Shown here: piece after piece, positions 10,319-32,071 of the stretch
Layout of the letters: each line of letters starts with the position of its first letter
How positions within the stretch are numbered: the first letter of the stretch is position 1
DNA from: Caldisericota bacterium
GTDB lineage: Bacteria > Caldisericota > JANLFM01
Length of the DNA stretch: 35,566 nt
Reading direction: 5' to 3'
NCBI GenBank assembly: GCA_024655865.1
Contig: JANLFM010000008.1
Span: 1-35,566 of the forward strand
The notes under the pieces: model-generated
Databases searched by the model: none
The model's input: only the letters and a program-made list of their open reading frames with translations
Told to the model about the DNA's origin: nothing
Translations under genes and position numbers: made by a program

Positions 10319-11134
10319 CTAAGGAGTAAATAGGTGGAAGAGGGGCTCTCCGTACTTGTCCTTGCCGAAATCGCCGATTAATTGGAGGACATCGGGAGAA
10401 GTGATCCAAGAAAAAAAGAGCTGAGCTTCCTTTGAGTGGATCTGGGGAAATTTTTGAGCGTTGATTAAAATCACGGAGTAGACGTTGAGCAGGTCCTTAT
10501 TTCCCTGAGAAATCACTTCCAAATTAAGGGTACCCTTTTGCGCTAACCATGTGCTCCTGTCTGTAAGCGTGTAGGCCCCCTTTTCCGAAGCAATGCGCAG
10601 GGTTTCTCCCATTCCTTGTCCCGTAGAAAGGTAACTCATTTCGGCGCTTGTAGGGGTGAGGGATATGTTTTTCCAAAGGGCTAACTCCTTGAGATGAGTT
10701 CCGGACTGATCCCCTCTGGAAGCAAAAATCGCCTCCTTGCTGTGAGCAATTTTCTTTAATGCTTCATAGATATCCAGGTCTTTGGCTTTAGCAGGATCTG
10801 AGGAGGGGCCGACCAGGAGAAAATCGTTGTAGCAGATCTCCTGTCGCTTGGAGCCGTAGCCGGCGTTCATAAACTCCATCTCTTTGGCCTTATTATGCAC
10901 CAAGAGCACATCAGCATTGCCTCTTTGGCCCATGGCAATAGCTTCACCCGTTCCCGCTGCTATCACCTTGACTTTAACATTGTATTGATCTTCGAATTTG
11001 GGAATCAGGAAATCTAAAAGGCCTGAGTCCTGGACGCTAGTAGTAGTAGCGAGAATCATCGTGCTTTGACCACTACAAGAAAGAAGGGGAAGCAAGAACA
11101 CAAAAATCATAGGCAGGCTAAAGATTTTTTTCAT
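10319..11134 (-). CDS. tupA: Tungstate-binding lipoprotein TupA
   Basis: This is the extracytoplasmic receptor of the tungstate importer. The signal peptide ends in LPLLSC, with the lipidated cysteine at residue 20. The mature part opens with ATTTSVQDSGLLD, the oxyanion-binding TTTS motif typical of TupA, and continues with KVKVIAAGTGEAIAMGQRGN, HNKAKEMEFMNAGYG and SRGDQSGTH. The total is 271 residues, as in the family. The TTTS motif and lack of ModA-like features favour tungstate (TupA) over molybdate, though selectivity needs measurement. AAAGGAG lies 9 bases before the ATG. A structured leader and a promoter lie upstream. Confidence 0.92.
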   Translation of the reverse strand: MKKIFSLPMIFVFLLPLLSCSGQSTMILATTTSVQDSGLLDFLIPKFEDQYNVKVKVIAAGTGEAIAMGQRGNADVLLVHNKAKEMEFMNAGYGSKRQEICYNDFLLVGPSSDPAKAKDLDIYEALKKIAHSKEAIFASRGDQSGTHLKELALWKNISLTPTSAEMSYLSTGQGMGETLRIASEKGAYTLTDRSTWLAQKGTLNLEVISQGNKDLLNVYSVILINAQKFPQIHSKEAQLFFSWITSPDVLQLIGDFGKDKYGEPLFHLFTP

Positions 11135-11159
11135 TCCTTCGGTCTCCTTTCCAAATTCC

Positions 11160-11250
11160 GGGAGGCAGGAAAATTGCTTTTCCTACCCTCAGCCTGATTT
11201 TTCAGGCATCGCCCGCAAGTTCCCGGAGGGAGCCTTACGGGTCGGATGAA
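11160..11250 (-). ncRNA. Structured tupA leader, candidate Moco/Tuco-type riboswitch
   Basis: Between its promoter and tupA the leader can fold into three consecutive hairpins, in transcript order. The first has arms 11241-11234 and 11219-11212 (8 bp, one wobble), capped by an inner UCCC/GGGA hairpin. The second has arms 11207-11202 and 11197-11192 (GCCUGA/UCAGGC) with an AAAA loop. The third has arms 11184-11178 and 11173-11167 with a GNRA loop (GCAA) and a lower GAGG/CCUC stem. The AAAGGAG site of tupA follows within about 12 bases. Moco riboswitches are known upstream of transporter and cofactor genes in Clostridia and use a GNRA tetraloop with receptor; a shorter form is linked to tungsten cofactor. 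Membership of that family is inferred from context and architecture, not from a covariance match. Confidence 0.5.
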
Positions 11251-11263
11251 CCTTAGCTAAAAG

Positions 11264-11298: not shown

Positions 11299-12144
11299 CT
11301 AAAGCTGAATTTGATTCAGAGTCCCTCGTTCAAGGTCGAAAAAGAGAAGCTTATTCCTGTAATCCTCCCCTTTCCCGATGAGAAACTGGATGACAATAGC
11401 AGCTTCCAGGGCTCCGATAAAGGCGGGAGTAGGGGAGGGAGTACCCAGTTCGGTTTCCGCTCCATGCTCTGGGGCGCGATCAGCTGAACCGTATATTTTC
11501 TCAATTCCTTGCTCAGAGAGATGGAAGAGAGCTGCTTGCCCCATGAACCCGGCAATGGCTCCATGTACCATAGGTTTTTGAAACTTAACGCAGCCCTCCC
11601 AGAGGATAAAGCGCTGAGTTATATCTCCAAGGGCATCGACGCAGAGGTCGACATCAGAGATCACGGCCTCCAGGTTTTCCCTTGTGAGGTAAGTGGCCAC
11701 CGCTTGAACTTCGATCGAGGGATTTACCTTGTTTAATCTTTTCTTCATTTCTCGGGCCTTATTCTTTCCTAGGAGGCCGGGCAGGGAACCCAACTGCCGA
11801 TTGAGGTTACTTTCCACGAAGCGGTCTCCGTCGACGAGACGAATAAAACCCACACCGGCGCGGGCGAGGATTTCTGCCACCCAGCCGCCAAGACCGCCTA
11901 CTCCAATGATGGCTACTTTCGACTCGAGAAGTTTAATCTGTCCCTCGATTCCAATTGAATTAATATTTCGCTCGTACCTCTCCGGAACGATTTCGTAGCG
12001 CAGCGCATGTATTTCTACTTCTCTTGATGAAACCTTCAAAGCTTTGGCTAATTCCTGAACCTGTAAGTGACCGATAACCCTCCTTTTTGAACCTGAAGGA
12101 AGGGTGAGCTCATAGCTAAGGGCCTCGATATCCTCTCTCCTCAT
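11299..12144 (-). CDS. E1-like adenylyltransferase, ThiF/MoeB/HesA family
   Basis: The family adenylates the C-terminal glycine of a ubiquitin-like sulfur carrier such as MoaD or ThiS. Of 281 residues, the first 55 form an extra N-terminal segment. The Rossmann core then has GVGGLGG (81-87), VDGDRF (104-109), SNLNRQLGS with the arginine finger, CVDALGD, and HGAIAGFMGQAALF. The paired CxxC zinc motifs of MoeB are absent; only Cys in DLCVD and EGCVKF are seen. It sits directly upstream of the tungstate/cofactor operon on the same strand, which suggests activation of a MoaD-like carrier encoded elsewhere. AAGGAG lies 10 bases upstream of the ATG. A role with ThiS or another carrier cannot be excluded. 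Confidence 0.85.
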   Translation of the reverse strand: MRREDIEALSYELTLPSGSKRRVIGHLQVQELAKALKVSSREVEIHALRYEIVPERYERNINSIGIEGQIKLLESKVAIIGVGGLGGWVAEILARAGVGFIRLVDGDRFVESNLNRQLGSLPGLLGKNKAREMKKRLNKVNPSIEVQAVATYLTRENLEAVISDVDLCVDALGDITQRFILWEGCVKFQKPMVHGAIAGFMGQAALFHLSEQGIEKIYGSADRAPEHGAETELGTPSPTPAFIGALEAAIVIQFLIGKGEDYRNKLLFFDLERGTLNQIQL

Positions 12145-12219
12145 TTTTCCATCGCTCCTTATGATTATTGAAAAATCTCTCTCCCAATGCCTTTAGTTAG
12201 AAAACTGGGCAAAGATCTC

Positions 12220-12248
12220 ATTATCATCTCAATGATAGCGCAGCCCAA
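12220..12248 (-). promoter_or_regulatory. Weak candidate promoter of the E1-like gene
   Basis: On the - strand TTGGGC (12248-12243) and GATAAT (12225-12220) are separated by 17 bases. The -10 matches 5 of 6 consensus bases but the -35 only 3 of 6. The rest of 12145-12340 shows nothing I can name. Confidence 0.25.
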
Positions 12249-12340
12249 TTGATGAATCCAAGCCCGGTTTGGAGAGCGGTACAGATAAGGAACAATAAAG
12301 GAGATATTGGGAACGAAAGAAATCCGTCTTTGGGCTGGCC

Positions 12341-13072
12341 ATGAAGGGGCTGCTCTATTATAATTCCTCTAACCTGGACATGATGAGAAAGTTAAACTGG
12401 CGCACGGTAATTTGGATACTGATCTTGATTGCTCTCCTGGGGTCCGCTTTTTTCTGGTTACCTTCAGTTTACCACTTTCTGAGCGATCGACCTCGAATTG
12501 AGGCCTTCCTCAACTCTCTTGGTTTCTGGGCTCCTCTGGGTCTGATTGCCATCCAGGCTCTCCAGGTTGCGCTTTTTCCAGTTCCCGGTCTCTTCGGCAT
12601 GCTGGGAGGATTTATCTTTGGCTTCCTTCCCGGCTTAATTTACAGCCAGATTGGCACCGTCCTGGGATCCATGCTGGCATTTTTCCTCGCAAAAGTTTTT
12701 GGCAGGCCGCTCGTAGAAAAGATAGTCCCCAGAGAGAAACTGGAGAAAGTTGACTCCCTGGCCCGCAACAGAGGAACCCTTTTTTTCTTGATCTACTACT
12801 GGGTACCCTATGTTCCCAAGGATGCCATGTGCTATGTTGCCGGGCTAACGCCAATGGGATACTGGAGCTATCTTGTGGTCTCCTTTTTGGGCAGATTGCC
12901 CGGCACAATTGGTGCCACCCTTGTAGGTGCCGGGATCTGGCAGTTTCAAATACCTCTCTGGGGCTGGATTATCCTGGGCTTTTTGATAGTCGTTATCCTC
13001 AGTTTGGGCATTCTTTACCGTGATGCTTTAAAAAAATGGGTTTTGGGGGTTCTGGAGAAAAACTGGAAGTAG
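12341..13072 (+). CDS. TVP38/TMEM64 (DedA-like, SNARE-associated) membrane protein
   Basis: This is an integral membrane protein of 243 residues with about five to six hydrophobic segments. The family core is GMLGGFIFGFLPGLIYSQIG, then GSMLAFFLAKVFGRPLVEKI, then FFLIYYWVPYVPKDAMCYVAG, and it matches the VTT/SNARE_assoc domain. Relatives are implicated in membrane lipid scrambling or undecaprenyl-phosphate recycling, but no substrate can be assigned here. The start is uncertain: ATG at 12341 lacks a good ribosome binding site, and internal ATGs at 12380 and 12383 also lack one. It is a single + strand gene between two - strand operons, facing a terminator 32 bases after its stop. Confidence 0.85.
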   Translation: MKGLLYYNSSNLDMMRKLNWRTVIWILILIALLGSAFFWLPSVYHFLSDRPRIEAFLNSLGFWAPLGLIAIQALQVALFPVPGLFGMLGGFIFGFLPGLIYSQIGTVLGSMLAFFLAKVFGRPLVEKIVPREKLEKVDSLARNRGTLFFLIYYWVPYVPKDAMCYVAGLTPMGYWSYLVVSFLGRLPGTIGATLVGAGIWQFQIPLWGWIILGFLIVVILSLGILYRDALKKWVLGVLEKNWK

Positions 13073-13104
13073 TCTAAGTGGCTTTCCTGTACCTTAGCGA
13101 ACTA

Positions 13105-13151
13105 TTAAAACTGAAAGGCCGGGGAAACTCTCCCGAGCCTTTCAGTTTTAA
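13105..13151. terminator. Strong bidirectional rho-independent terminator
   Basis: A perfect 15-bp stem, 13105-13119 against 13137-13151 (TTAAAACTGAAAGGC and its complement), encloses a loop that itself contains CGGG/CCCG (13120-13123 and 13132-13135). Each arm ends in a T-rich run in its own reading direction. It therefore can end both the + strand TVP38 transcript and the long - strand envelope operon. Confidence 0.85.
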
Positions 13152-13166
13152 ACCAGCTTTTTCACC

Positions 13167-13238
13167 TTATTTCTTTTTCTTTGCTGTTTTCTTTGCTGCT
13201 TTCTTTGTCTCTTTGGGAGCGGGCTTCTTGGTGGCCAT
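13167..13238 (-). CDS. 23-residue Lys/Ala-rich microprotein
   Basis: A short ORF, ATG at 13238 to TAA at 13167, encodes MATKKPAPKETKKAAKKTAK followed by KKK: 23 residues, 12 of them Lys, the rest mostly Ala, Thr and Pro. It has a near-perfect ribosome binding site, AAAGGAGG, 8 bases before the ATG. It begins 23 bases after the csaB stop, and ends 16 bases before the terminator. The composition resembles histone-H1-like tails and other nucleic-acid or polyanion-binding Lys/Ala repeats. I do not recognise a named family. The case for translation is the ribosome binding site, the spacing and the placement inside the operon. Confidence 0.65.
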   Translation of the reverse strand: MATKKPAPKETKKAAKKTAKKKK

Positions 13239-13261
13239 TAAAATTCCTCCTTTCTTTCCTT

Positions 13262-14353
13262 TCAGGGCAAGCTATTAATTATTCGTTCCAAGTGTATCCA
13301 GTTTTCTTCCGCTTTCTGTTCCAGCTGGGACGCCCCTTTTTCCAAGTTTTCTTTTATTTTTGCACGATTTTTTAAATATGCCTCAATTTTTGAAAATATT
13401 TTTTCTGCATCGTCTTCAAGGAACAATGCTTCCTGATTTAAAAGTTGGGCAAAGGAGCTCACTTTAGGGTCGTACGCGATGGGCAGAAAAGGGGTGCGGG
13501 CTAAGGCCGAGAAAATCAAGGAATGTAATCGCATGCCCACCACCAGTTCAGCTTTGGCAAAAAGGCTGATAATCTGTTTCGGTTTCAAAAAAGGGCACAG
13601 AATGCTTTGAGGAACGAGCGCGCTCAACTTTTCACACAGTTCCTGGTCCACGGCAAACTGAAAGGGAAGAAACACGATTTCCGCTTGAAACTCCCTTTGG
13701 ATACGGGTTGCTATTTCTGAAAAGTCCTCGACCCGGATTCTTCTGTGTTTGGGATTCCTGAGACAGAAAACCACGAATGGTTCTTTGAGGCCCAAAAATT
13801 TCAGGATTTCGTTTGCCTCCTCATCTTCGGGCTTTTCAAGAAGGAGTGCCAGATCAGCAGTCTGATACGTAGGAACTTGTTTCACTCCTAATTTTTCCAG
13901 CTCTTTAAGGGAGTGCTCATCCCTGACCGTGATCAATGTGACCTTATTTAGAACCCAGGAGGTTAATTCTCGGTTGATTCTCTTGGAAATGGGGCCGATG
14001 CTTTGAGCCAGAAGAACAACCCTTTTTCGGAAAAGTACCCCCAGAAAGATGATACTCAAATAATAGAGCAGGCTGCGAGATGAAGTAGCATCCTGAAGCA
14101 GCCCTCCGCCACCTGAAATAAGGATGTCACAATTCAGCACAGAAGAGAGAACGGAGATGGGGTTGATCCTTGATACAGATTTAACCCCGTGTTCCTTCTG
14201 CGTGCGCCTGGGATAAGCGGAGAGAACAGTGACTTTGGCTTTTGGGAATCTTCTAAGAATTCTAAGAAGGGAGGTTAAGATGGCTTCATCCCCTGTGTTG
14301 CCGAAGCCGTAGTATCCTGAAACAGTAATTTTTAATTTCTCTTTCTTAGGCAC
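13262..14353 (-). CDS. csaB: Polysaccharide pyruvyl transferase CsaB
   Basis: CsaB transfers pyruvate from phosphoenolpyruvate to a cell-wall polysaccharide, creating the ketal that SLH domains recognise. The 363 residues show the N-terminal SGYYGFGNTGDEAIL, the central ISGGGGLLQDATS and VLLAQSIGP, and the C-terminal GMRLHSLIFSALA, all hallmarks of the PS_pyruv_trans family. I used GTG at 14353, so the protein begins at PKKEKLKITVSGYYG as CsaB proteins do. A GTG at 14431 would run 78 bases further into the upstream gene. It overlaps the TagA-like gene by 22 bases, a tagA-csaB pairing that is common in SLH-bearing Firmicutes. An SLH protein is encoded at 32102-33313. Confidence 0.9.
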   Translation of the reverse strand: MPKKEKLKITVSGYYGFGNTGDEAILTSLLRILRRFPKAKVTVLSAYPRRTQKEHGVKSVSRINPISVLSSVLNCDILISGGGGLLQDATSSRSLLYYLSIIFLGVLFRKRVVLLAQSIGPISKRINRELTSWVLNKVTLITVRDEHSLKELEKLGVKQVPTYQTADLALLLEKPEDEEANEILKFLGLKEPFVVFCLRNPKHRRIRVEDFSEIATRIQREFQAEIVFLPFQFAVDQELCEKLSALVPQSILCPFLKPKQIISLFAKAELVVGMRLHSLIFSALARTPFLPIAYDPKVSSFAQLLNQEALFLEDDAEKIFSKIEAYLKNRAKIKENLEKGASQLEQKAEENWIHLERIINSLP

Positions 14354-15078
14354 CAAATCCTCAGAAAAAATGGCCCGGTTTTGGCCAGTCTGATAAGCCT
14401 CCTGGGCTCGACAAGAATTCTGTAAAGCCACTCCAGACCGATCTTGCGCATCCAGAGCGGAGCTCTGCTTCTGGCTCCCGCCCAGATCTCCAGGGCCCCT
14501 CCTACTGCTATTCCTAGACGATAGGCGGATTGGGGGAGAGAAAGGAGGAATTTCTCCTGTTTTCCTGCACCCATGCCTACGATCAAAAGCGCTGTCCCCG
14601 CTTGTTGAATTCCTTCTTTGATCCCCGCGCTTTCTTCCTCCTTAAAGAAGCCGTGATGAAATCCAGCAATATTGATATTCGGGAATAAAGTCCGAAAATT
14701 TTGAGCGGCTTTTTCCGATATCCCTGGGCGGGAACCAAGGAAATAAACCGGCAGTCCCTCTTCAGCACAGATTTTGATCAAAGCCTCGGCAAGTTCAATA
14801 CCAGGGATTCTCTGGAGTCTGAGAGCGTGCAACCTTTGCGCTGCCCAAGTTATCCCAATCCCATCCGGGATCACAAACAGGGCGTTTCTAATAGCAGAGA
14901 GGAGATCCCGATCCTTTAAAGCCAAGGTAGCAATTTCCGGATTTAAGGTCACGATGTAGCCCGAAGGTCGCCCCCCCCTGAGGGCGCACCTTGAGATCTC
15001 AATTAATTCGCTTTTGGTGAGCTGAGAAACGGGAACCCCGAGTATCTCTATGCTCTTTTTCTCTACTTCGAGTACCAT
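14332..15078 (-). CDS. WecG/TagA/CpsF-family glycosyltransferase (GT26)
   Basis: Relatives transfer N-acetylmannosamine or its uronic acid onto an undecaprenyl-linked GlcNAc, an early step of wall or capsule polymer synthesis. The 248 residues include VTLNPEIATLALKD (about 43-56), VIPDGIGITWAAQR, YFLGSRPGISEKAA and VGMGAGKQEKFL, all family landmarks. Hydrophilic throughout, it should act at the cytoplasmic membrane face. WecB in the same operon makes UDP-ManNAc, which fits this donor. It overlaps both neighbours by 16 to 22 bases. Confidence 0.9.
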   Translation of the reverse strand: MVLEVEKKSIEILGVPVSQLTKSELIEISRCALRGGRPSGYIVTLNPEIATLALKDRDLLSAIRNALFVIPDGIGITWAAQRLHALRLQRIPGIELAEALIKICAEEGLPVYFLGSRPGISEKAAQNFRTLFPNINIAGFHHGFFKEEESAGIKEGIQQAGTALLIVGMGAGKQEKFLLSLPQSAYRLGIAVGGALEIWAGARSRAPLWMRKIGLEWLYRILVEPRRLIRLAKTGPFFLRIWCLRKRN

Positions 15079-30035: not shown

Positions 30036-30496
30036 AACCCTCCTTCGATCTCAGCAATTTTCTTAACGCGACGAACGTGTCTTTCTTCCGAGGAAACCCC
30101 TGTTTCAAGCCAGGTTTCTACAATTTTTAACGCCAGTTTGGAACCGATAATTTTTCCTCCCAAACAGAGGACGTTAGCGTGATTGTGCTGGCGGGCTAAT
30201 TGAGCGGATAAAGGGTCATGGCAGAGCGCAGCTCTAACCCCCTTCACTTTATTAGCCACAATAGAAACGCCAATGCCTGTGGTGCACACCAAGATACCCA
30301 AGGAAAACTGACCTGAGGAAACAGCCTGAGCTACTTGAAAGGCATAGTCTGGGTAATCAACCGATTCATCGGAAAAAGTGCCAAAATCTCTAATCTTAAA
30401 ACCTCGGGAAAGCAGATAATTTTTGATTTCCTCTTTTAAGGCGTATCCACCGTGGTCAGCGCCTAAGGCAATAACTAAGCTACTATTCTGATCCAT
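30029..30496 (-). CDS. rpiB: Ribose-5-phosphate isomerase B
   Basis: RpiB interconverts ribose-5-phosphate and ribulose-5-phosphate. The 155 residues contain ALGADHGGYALKEEIKNYL near the start, DYPDYAFQVAQAV, and the catalytic-cysteine loop LVCTTGIGVSIVANKVKGVR. The usual CGTGIG loop is CTTGIG here; the nucleophilic Cys is kept. The phosphate-binding CHDPLSAQLARQHNHANVLCLG block also matches, with its His residues. Its start overlaps the decarboxylase gene by 22 bases. Confidence 0.94.
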   Translation of the reverse strand: MDQNSSLVIALGADHGGYALKEEIKNYLLSRGFKIRDFGTFSDESVDYPDYAFQVAQAVSSGQFSLGILVCTTGIGVSIVANKVKGVRAALCHDPLSAQLARQHNHANVLCLGGKIIGSKLALKIVETWLETGVSSEERHVRRVKKIAEIEGGLC

Positions 30497-31932
30497 TTTT
30501 CCTCACCTTCGCCTTCTAAGCCGTGAATGACCAGGCCAATCCTGATAATCTTCCATAAATAGGAAACAACTTCTTCCTCAATTTTTTCACCGGGGCAGAG
30601 AACTGGAATCCCAGGTGGGTATGGAGCCACGATCTCGGAACTGATTTTCCCTACGGCATCCTTTAGAGGAATGAGACGGTGAGGCGCCTGGAAAGCCTCC
30701 CTGGGAGTCAGAACCTGCTCCGGTATTCCGGGCAATGTAGATCCTTCCAAATCTCGAAGTTCTTTGGGTGCTTTTCCGTTGGTTTGCTTAACTCTGCGCA
30801 TCGCTTGAACTAATCGATCTATAGATTCCCAGGTGTCTCCGGTGCTAACTAAGCAAAGTACATTCCAGGGATCAGAGAGCTCAACTTCAACTCCTTCCTT
30901 TCTGAGCATCTTTTCCGCTTCTCTTCCCGAAATTCCGCTTTCCTTGAAGTTTATGGTGAGCTTCATTGGGTCCAGATAAAAATCTCCGACTTTAGAGATG
31001 TCCTCCTCACCTAAACATTTCAAACCCTCAATTCTGTTCAATTCCGCTCGAGCGTATTCCGCAAGATCAATAGCTTTTTGCCAGATCTCTCTCCCGTAGT
31101 TCACCATTTGCCACCTGGAGGCGTCGAGGGAAACCGTAAGAAGGTATGAAGGAGAGGTTGTTTGCAGGATTAGAAGGGCGGATTGCAAACGATGGAGGTC
31201 AATAATTCCTTTATTGTAGTGCAACAGGGAGGATTGGGTTAAGCTTGAAAGAGTCTTGTGTGCACTTTGCGCCACAAGATCAGCCTTAGCTTTTAAAGCT
31301 GAAGGAGGAAAGCTCTCGTGAAAGATAAAGTGAGCCCCATGAGCCTCATCCACCAGGACGGGGAGTCCATGTTCATGGCAAATTTTCACGATTGAATAGC
31401 TGTCCTGTGTGACTCCATAGTAGTTGGGGGAGGTTAAAAAGATCGCCTTAGCTTTTGGGTACCTCTCAAGGGCAGCCTTAACTTCTTCCAGGTTGTTAGG
31501 GAAGGAGAAACCGCATTCCCATGAAAACTTTGATGGCAGGTATCTAGGAAACGCTCCGCTTAAAATCAACCCACCAATAGCTGACCTGTGTGAAGCGCGA
31601 GAGATAATAATCTCATCTCCTTCAGTCACTGAAGAGAAAATCATTGCCAGAATGCAACCGGTAGTTCCGTTGACCACAAAAAAAGTTTGATCAGTCCCGA
31701 AAGCCTGCGTCGCCAAATCCAAAGCTTCTTTGATGATTCCTCGTGGTGTCAGAAGATGGTCCAGCGGAGCAATTTCCGTGAGATCCAATCGAAATACATT
31801 TTCTCCCAGGAACTCCTTCAGGGTTAAGGGCGCACCGCTACCCCCCTTATGCCCGGGAATATGCATGGGAAGCCTTTTCTCCTTTAAGAAGGAGAGAAGA
31901 CCCTCAAAAAGTGGAATTCGCTTCTGGTCCGT
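30475..31932 (-). CDS. Orn/Lys/Arg decarboxylase family PLP enzyme
   Basis: This fold-type I PLP decarboxylase, of the group that includes the SpeA/YaaO/Ldc proteins, makes a polyamine or diamine from a basic amino acid. The substrate is not determined. It opens KRIPLFEGLLSFLKEKRLPM, then HIPGHKGGSG. It has FFVVNGTTGCILAMI, VDEAHGAHF, the PLP lysine in VAQSAHKTLSSLTQSSLLH, and the C-terminal AYPPGIPVLCPGE-like APYPPGIPVLCPGE. The reading frame runs back through the tRNA-Pro gene and has no ATG, GTG or TTG between it and the conserved N-terminus. The best start is ACG at 31932, 8 bases after AAAGGAG, giving 485 aa. A start at ATG 31866 would drop 22 conserved residues. Confidence 0.9.
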   Translation of the reverse strand, partial: TDQKRIPLFEGLLSFLKEKRLPMHIPGHKGGSGAPLTLKEFLGENVFRLDLTEIAPLDHLLTPRGIIKEALDLATQAFGTDQTFFVVNGTTGCILAMIFSSVTEGDEIIISRASHRSAIGGLILSGAFPRYLPSKFSWECGFSFPNNLEEVKAALERYPKAKAIFLTSPNYYGVTQDSYSIVKICHEHGLPVLVDEAHGAHFIFHESFPPSALKAKADLVAQSAHKTLSSLTQSSLLHYNKGIIDLHRLQSALLILQTTSPSYLLTVSLDASRWQMVNYGREIWQKAIDLAEYARAELNRIEGLKCLGEEDISKVGDFYLDPMKLTINFKESGISGREAEKMLRKEGVEVELSDPWNVLCLVSTGDTWESIDRLVQAMRRVKQTNGKAPKELRDLEGSTLPGIPEQVLTPREAFQAPHRLIPLKDAVGKISSEIVAPYPPGIPVLCPGEKIEEEVVSYLWKIIRIGLVIHGLEGEGEEKWIRIVA

Positions 31933-31960
31933 TTTCGCCTCTCCTTTGAATAATAATTCA

Positions 31961-32037
31961 TGGTCGGGGCGGCCGGATTTGAACCGACGACCTCTTGGTC
32001 CCGAACCAAGCGCTCTACCAAGCTGAGCCACACCCCG
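31961..32037 (-). tRNA. tRNA-Pro, anticodon CGG
   Basis: This is a 77-base cloverleaf on the - strand. Acceptor arms CGGGGTG and CGCCCCG pair with one G-U. The D-arm is around GGCTCAGCTTGGTAGAGC. The anticodon stem CTTGG/CCAAG encloses loop TTCGGGA with anticodon CGG. The T-arm is GTCGG TTCAAAT CCGGC, and the 3' CCA is encoded. The CGG anticodon reads proline CCG codons. It lies between a strong promoter and the decarboxylase gene, with no terminator in between. Confidence 0.95.
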
Positions 32038-32071
32038 ACGCATTTGCTTAAACCCCTAATCAGTGATTTTG

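What the first reader, a model, noticed from the sequence alone, without database searches (positions are those of the whole stretch)
13167..13238. 23-residue Lys/Ala-rich microprotein at the end of the cell-envelope operon
Too short for usual gene calling, yet it has a near-perfect AAAGGAGG site at ideal distance, tight spacing after csaB and a terminator just after its stop. Twelve of 23 residues are Lys in an AAKKTAKK-like pattern, as in histone-H1-type tails. A very basic peptide co-made with anionic wall polymer enzymes could bind the polymer, nucleic acid or membranes. No family comes to mind.
Basis: partly seen in the sequence, partly recalled or inferred. Interest (0 to 1): 0.6.

Follow-up and report, generated by a model that had tools for sequence, protein, structure and literature searches.

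The report
Conserved tiny lysine-rich protein gene
A 23-residue, half-lysine protein too small for routine annotation is a real gene, kept by selection at the end of the same cell-wall operon in four related Caldisericota genomes; what it binds is unknown, and it is a modest but solid find.

Summary
The ORF is real. It lies on the minus strand (13238..13167) and reads MATKKPAPKETKKAAKKTAKKKK, with 11 Lys, not 12. AAAGGAGG sits 7 nt before the ATG, csaB stops 23 nt upstream, and a strong terminator hairpin begins 15 nt after the stop. The same gene follows csaB in all four family genomes that have csaB (three genera): 19-23 aa, invariant KKPAPKE, Lys-rich tail, same RBS, terminator. Between the two congeners 11 of 12 nucleotide differences are at third positions and one residue changes, so it is translated and under purifying selection. 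It is single-copy and was not found in other Caldisericota families, although they have csaB. No Pfam, NCBIfam or PDB relative. A look-alike 22-aa gene, also under selection, occurs in three Bacillota MAGs next to an M23 peptidase, with a promoter-like sequence of its own and no csaB match in their class. That weakens, without excluding, the wall-polymer reading. Best reading: a cytoplasmic, disordered polycation that binds a polyanion (RNA, ribosome or DNA preferred; anionic wall-polymer intermediates the main rival). Existence of the gene: about 0.95. Mechanism: about 0.35.

The parts
13167..13238 (-). Microprotein gene, 23 aa, MATKKPAPKETKKAAKKTAKKKK
   Evidence: orthologues; codon-level selection
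13246..13253 (-). Shine-Dalgarno AAAGGAGG, 7 nt before the ATG
   Evidence: the same 8-mer 6-7 nt before the ATG in the three orthologues
13105..13151 (.). Intrinsic terminator hairpin, A-flanked and T-flanked, so probably bidirectional (shared with convergent DedA/VTT gene)
   Evidence: fold -29.4 kcal/mol, z -5.7; hairpins in the same place in the three orthologues, z -5.5, -4.0, -7.0
13262..14431 (-). csaB, polysaccharide pyruvyl transferase, gene directly upstream (start codon uncertain)
   Evidence: PF04230, 175 bits
14332..15078 (-). WecG/TagA-type glycosyltransferase of the same operon
   Evidence: PF03808
15063..26418 (-). Rest of the co-directional wall-polymer cluster: DegT aminotransferase, two GT4, CapD-like epimerase, Wzy-like ligase, LytR-CpsA-Psr, MurJ, DUF4330, EPSP-synthase/MurA family

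Best explanation
The ORF is a genuine protein-coding gene, probably co-transcribed as the last cistron of the csaB wall-polymer operon and translated from its own strong Shine-Dalgarno site. Its product is a cytoplasmic, unfolded polycation of 19-23 residues (net charge +8 to +10): an invariant KKPAPKE head and a Lys tail that varies in length. Inferred mechanism: it binds a polyanion through dense Lys charge kept extended by Pro/Ala, as H1/AlgP-type tails do, most likely RNA/ribosome or DNA, as a small accessory or condensing peptide. Shown: gene, conservation, selection, position after csaB, composition. Inferred: co-transcription, location, disorder, polyanion binding, and the choice of nucleic acid as target.
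For: Orthologues directly after csaB with the same RBS in 4 of 4 csaB-bearing genomes of the family: besides this one MATKKPAPKETKKTAKKTAKKKK, MPGKKPAPKEKKNPKTKKK, MPAKKPAPKEKKTSAKKPAKKK. G000 against G001: 12 differences, 11 at third positions, one residue changed; 0 of 200,000 random placements of the same changes do as well, and 3.5e-5 reach 11 third-position changes. KKPAPKE is invariant while csaB is 46-55% identical to G002 and G003. Lys codons swap AAA/AAG freely, so the peptide and not the nucleotide tract is kept. No strongly hydrophobic residues apart from Met. KPAA-repeat peptides of AlgP bind DNA in vitro (PMC9239181). An independent look-alike with a promoter-like sequence upstream, in Bacillota without a csaB match, argues for a target that does not depend on csaB.
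Against: No expression or binding data. The gene stays with the csaB cluster throughout the family and was not found without it, which nucleic-acid binding does not explain. 23 residues are few for stable sequence-independent binding. Homology to the Bacillota gene cannot be shown with such low-complexity sequence.
Confidence: 0.4

Rival explanations
1. Envelope partner: the peptide acts with the pyruvylated wall polymer made by the operon, for example by neutralising lipid-linked anionic intermediates on the cytoplasmic face or by holding CsaB and the WecG/TagA transferase to them.
For: Same place after csaB in three genera; operon rich in wall-polymer genes; 47-66 SLH-domain matches per family genome, so a pyruvylated anchor polymer is probably in use. 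In the most incomplete relative, G004, csaB, the DegT orthologue and the microgene are all missing together.
Against: Other Caldisericota families have csaB without the microgene. A look-alike exists in Bacillota genomes with no csaB match. No secretion signal. Synteny within one family may only reflect vertical inheritance.
Confidence: 0.25
2. Ribosomal or ribosome-associated micro-subunit in the manner of bTHX (26 aa, very basic): bound to rRNA, with the operon position incidental.
For: Size and charge; strong RBS.
Against: No NCBIfam hit even at E up to 10, no PDB relative at E up to 10; bTHX is Arg/Gly-rich (own knowledge), this is Lys/Ala/Pro/Thr only; restricted to one family.
Confidence: 0.15
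3. The act of translation matters, not the peptide: a strong RBS and short ORF before the terminator shield the 3' end of the long mRNA.
For: Last position before a terminator in all four genomes.
Against: Residue-level constraint with free synonymous change; KKPAPKE invariant in the four family sequences.
Confidence: 0.07
4. Chance ORF in an A/G-rich tail after csaB.
For: Very short, low complexity, 12-nt tandem repeat inside.
Against: None in 100 shuffles; conserved in three genera under selection.
Confidence: 0.02

Closest known systems
AlgP / PhaF KPAA-repeat C-terminal tails (Pseudomonas), histone H1-type tails
   Same: Lys/Ala/Pro-rich, presumed disordered, strongly cationic; AlgP and PhaF tails bind or are thought to bind DNA (PMC9239181)
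   Different: Those are long tails (about 150 aa of repeats in AlgP) on a folded N-terminal domain; this is a free peptide of 19-23 aa with no folded domain and a KKPAPKE head
22-aa MA(D/E)KKPA(P/Q)KKAAPAKKPAPKKK microgene in Bacillota MAGs UBA4975, UBA5496 and G063 (L036, L052, L079)
   Same: Length, KKPAPK head, Lys tail, GGAGG site; single copy (checked in UBA4975 and UBA5496), under purifying selection (13 of 13 differences at third positions)
   Different: Promoter-like sequence of its own, convergent with an M23 peptidase gene, no csaB match in the class; common ancestry undecided
bTHX ribosomal protein
   Same: Tiny, very basic
   Different: No family match; Arg/Gly-rich from own knowledge, and part of the 30S subunit
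Small KKPAPK-starting ORFs of phages (e.g. L137, L154)
   Same: Short, Lys/Pro-rich starts
   Different: Different tails and lengths; likely convergent low complexity

Membership tests
Protein-coding gene (versus chance ORF) | Orthologues with conserved frame and start in related species | tested here: met
   4 of 4 csaB-bearing family genomes
Protein-coding gene (versus chance ORF) | Substitutions concentrated at synonymous sites | tested here: met
   11 of 12 at third positions, one residue change
Protein-coding gene (versus chance ORF) | Translation detected | not testable with these tools
   needs ribosome profiling or mass spectrometry
AlgP/PhaF/H1-type tail proteins | Lys/Ala/Pro-rich low-complexity composition | tested here: met
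   K 11, A 5, T 3, P 2, E 1, M 1
AlgP/PhaF/H1-type tail proteins | Folded N-terminal domain plus long repeat tail | tested here: not met
   whole protein is 19-23 aa; AlgP layout from PMC9239181
AlgP/PhaF/H1-type tail proteins | Binds DNA or polyphosphate | not tested
   no assay; the PPK1 family was not found in G000, G001, G003, which lowers a polyP role
bTHX ribosomal protein | Match to a curated model | tested here: not met
   NCBIfam no match up to E=10; Pfam no match; very short queries have limited power
Regulatory leader peptide / attenuator | Located upstream of the regulated gene | tested here: not met
   last ORF before a terminator, with a convergent gene beyond
Secreted cationic peptide | Signal peptide or transport leader | tested here: not met
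   no hydrophobic segment in the sequence

The most novel reading that the evidence does not exclude
A widespread but unannotated class of stand-alone Lys/Pro/Ala microproteins (19-23 aa, KKPAPK head) shared by Caldisericota and Bacillota, with one conserved biochemical role and repeatedly placed beside cell-wall genes (csaB operon; M23 peptidase).
Probability: 0.12. Interest if true: 0.6.

Novelty: new member of a known kind. Interest (0 to 1): 0.4.

Why it matters
It is a clean example of a gene of only 19-23 codons that comparative evidence establishes despite its size, and it gives a minimal, testable polycation linked to SLH/pyruvate-type wall-polymer synthesis in an almost uncultured phylum. 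If it controls polymer synthesis or binds ribosomes, it would be among the smallest bacterial proteins with such a role.

Tried and rejected
Chance ORF: rejected by shuffles and selection. Paralogues in the same genome: none with the strict pattern, and of 12 GGAGG..ATGNNNNNNAARAAR starts in G000 only this one is a Lys-rich microgene. Orthologues in other Caldisericota families: none at csaB or with a looser pattern; the other in-frame hits are larger or unrelated proteins (the scan of csaB flanks covered 7 of the other families' loci). Known families and structures: none. Literature for the KKPAPK motif: nothing relevant. Polyphosphate-granule role as in AlgP: weakened, PPK1 not found in three of the four carriers (PPK2 not tested). 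Own promoter within the csaB 3' end: no minus-strand sigma-70-like site in 11500-14500. Phage origin: phage contigs hold unrelated KKPAPK-starting small ORFs.

Full report
OBSERVATION. The ORF lies on the minus strand, ATG at 13238 and TAA ending at 13167: MATKKPAPKETKKAAKKTAKKKK. AAAGGAGG precedes the ATG by 7 nt, csaB stops 23 nt upstream, and a hairpin of -29.4 kcal/mol (z = -5.7 against shuffles) starts 15 nt after the stop. It is the only ATG ORF of 15-40 aa with at least 40% Lys in the window, and 100 dinucleotide shuffles of the window gave none.

CONSERVATION. Whole-genome searches place the window in a phylum that named records identify as Caldisericota/Coprothermobacterota MAGs (lineage). 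Of five genomes in the family, four have a match to this csaB, and all four carry the microgene directly after it on the same strand: MATKKPAPKETKKAAKKTAKKKK, MATKKPAPKETKKTAKKTAKKKK, MPGKKPAPKEKKNPKTKKK, MPAKKPAPKEKKTSAKKPAKKK. Each has AAAGGAGG 6-7 nt before ATG and a terminator hairpin after the stop. The stem sequences differ between the two congeners but still pair. The fifth genome, G004, lacks csaB, the operon's DegT orthologue and the microgene; at 86% completeness that may be an assembly gap.

SELECTION. Between G000 and G001 there are 12 nucleotide differences in 72; 11 are at third positions and one residue changes (A14T). Placing the same base changes at random within the ORF gave at most one residue change and an intact frame in 0 of 200,000 trials, and 11 or more third-position changes in 3.5e-5. 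The head KKPAPKE is invariant in all four while csaB is only 46-55% identical to G002 and G003. The tail varies in length and exact order but stays Lys-rich. Lys codons alternate AAA/AAG. The peptide is therefore what is kept. This is direct comparative evidence for translation and function, without any expression data.

RANGE. The pattern ATG-x-x-KKPAPKE with one mismatch allowed occurs once in each of those four genomes and in none of the other 50 Caldisericota genomes searched. A looser search gave, among in-frame hits elsewhere in the phylum, only larger or unrelated proteins. csaB relatives occur throughout the phylum, so csaB does not require the microgene. In 84,980 genomes the RBS-plus-KKPAPK pattern gave 29 loci; besides the family members, two Bacillota MAGs carry a free 22-aa version, MA(D/E)KKPAPKKAAPAKKPAPKKK, and a third has MADKKPAQKKAAPAKKPAPKKK. 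Its 13 differences between UBA4975 and UBA5496 are all at third positions. There it stands convergent with an M23 peptidase gene, with a promoter-like sequence (extended TATTAT, read by eye) upstream, and no csaB match was found in 13 genomes of that class. Whether it is homologous cannot be decided with such low-complexity sequence. It shows at least that this kind of peptide is selected for in a setting without this csaB.

CONTEXT. Upstream and co-directional lie csaB, WecG/TagA glycosyltransferase, DegT aminotransferase, two GT4, a CapD-like epimerase, Wzy-like ligase, LytR-CpsA-Psr, MurJ, DUF4330 and an EPSP-synthase-family enzyme. The family genomes have 47-66 SLH-domain matches each, so a pyruvylated polymer is probably used for surface anchoring, as in Paenibacillus alvei (PMC6030368, abstract).

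MECHANISM. The product has no signal sequence and no strongly hydrophobic residue besides Met, and a net charge of +8 to +10 in 19-23 residues: it should be cytoplasmic, soluble, extended and polyanion-binding (inference). KPAA-type peptides from AlgP bind DNA in vitro (PMC9239181). I place nucleic acid or ribosome first, because a similar peptide is kept without csaB, and the wall-polymer machinery second, because in this family the gene never leaves the csaB operon. A polyphosphate role is lowered by the absence of PPK1 matches in three of four carriers. A purely cis role of translation is lowered by residue-level constraint.

VERDICT. The gene is real (about 0.95) and belongs to no curated family tested. 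It is a new orphan microprotein family of a known kind (small basic, disordered proteins). Its function is an inference only.

Noticed in passing
window 11128-11261 (-): Molybdenum/tungsten cofactor (Moco) riboswitch, 42.5 bits, directly before the ORF 10319-11134.
   Followed up: no
window 31964-32037 (-): tRNA gene that overlaps the 5' end of the Orn/Lys/Arg decarboxylase ORF 30475-32043, so the true start of that ORF must be further in.
   Followed up: no
L007, L009 (family f3 of the phylum): csaB lies in one open frame of about 860 aa or more that reads as glycosyltransferase GT4 + WecG/TagA + CsaB: an apparent triple fusion of what are separate genes in this window (domains judged by eye).
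   Followed up: partly
L036, L052, L079: Bacillota MAGs with a 22-aa KKPAPK microgene, promoter-like sequence upstream, convergent with an M23 peptidase gene; 13 of 13 substitutions between L036 and L052 at third positions.
   Followed up: partly
L137, L146, L154, L157: Phage contigs with tiny Lys/Pro-rich ORFs such as MAKKPAPKPKPPKPKPKGY, each seen twice.
   Followed up: no
window 13175-13207: 12-nt tandem repeat (2.8 copies) inside the ORF, a likely route by which the Lys tail changes length.
   Followed up: partly
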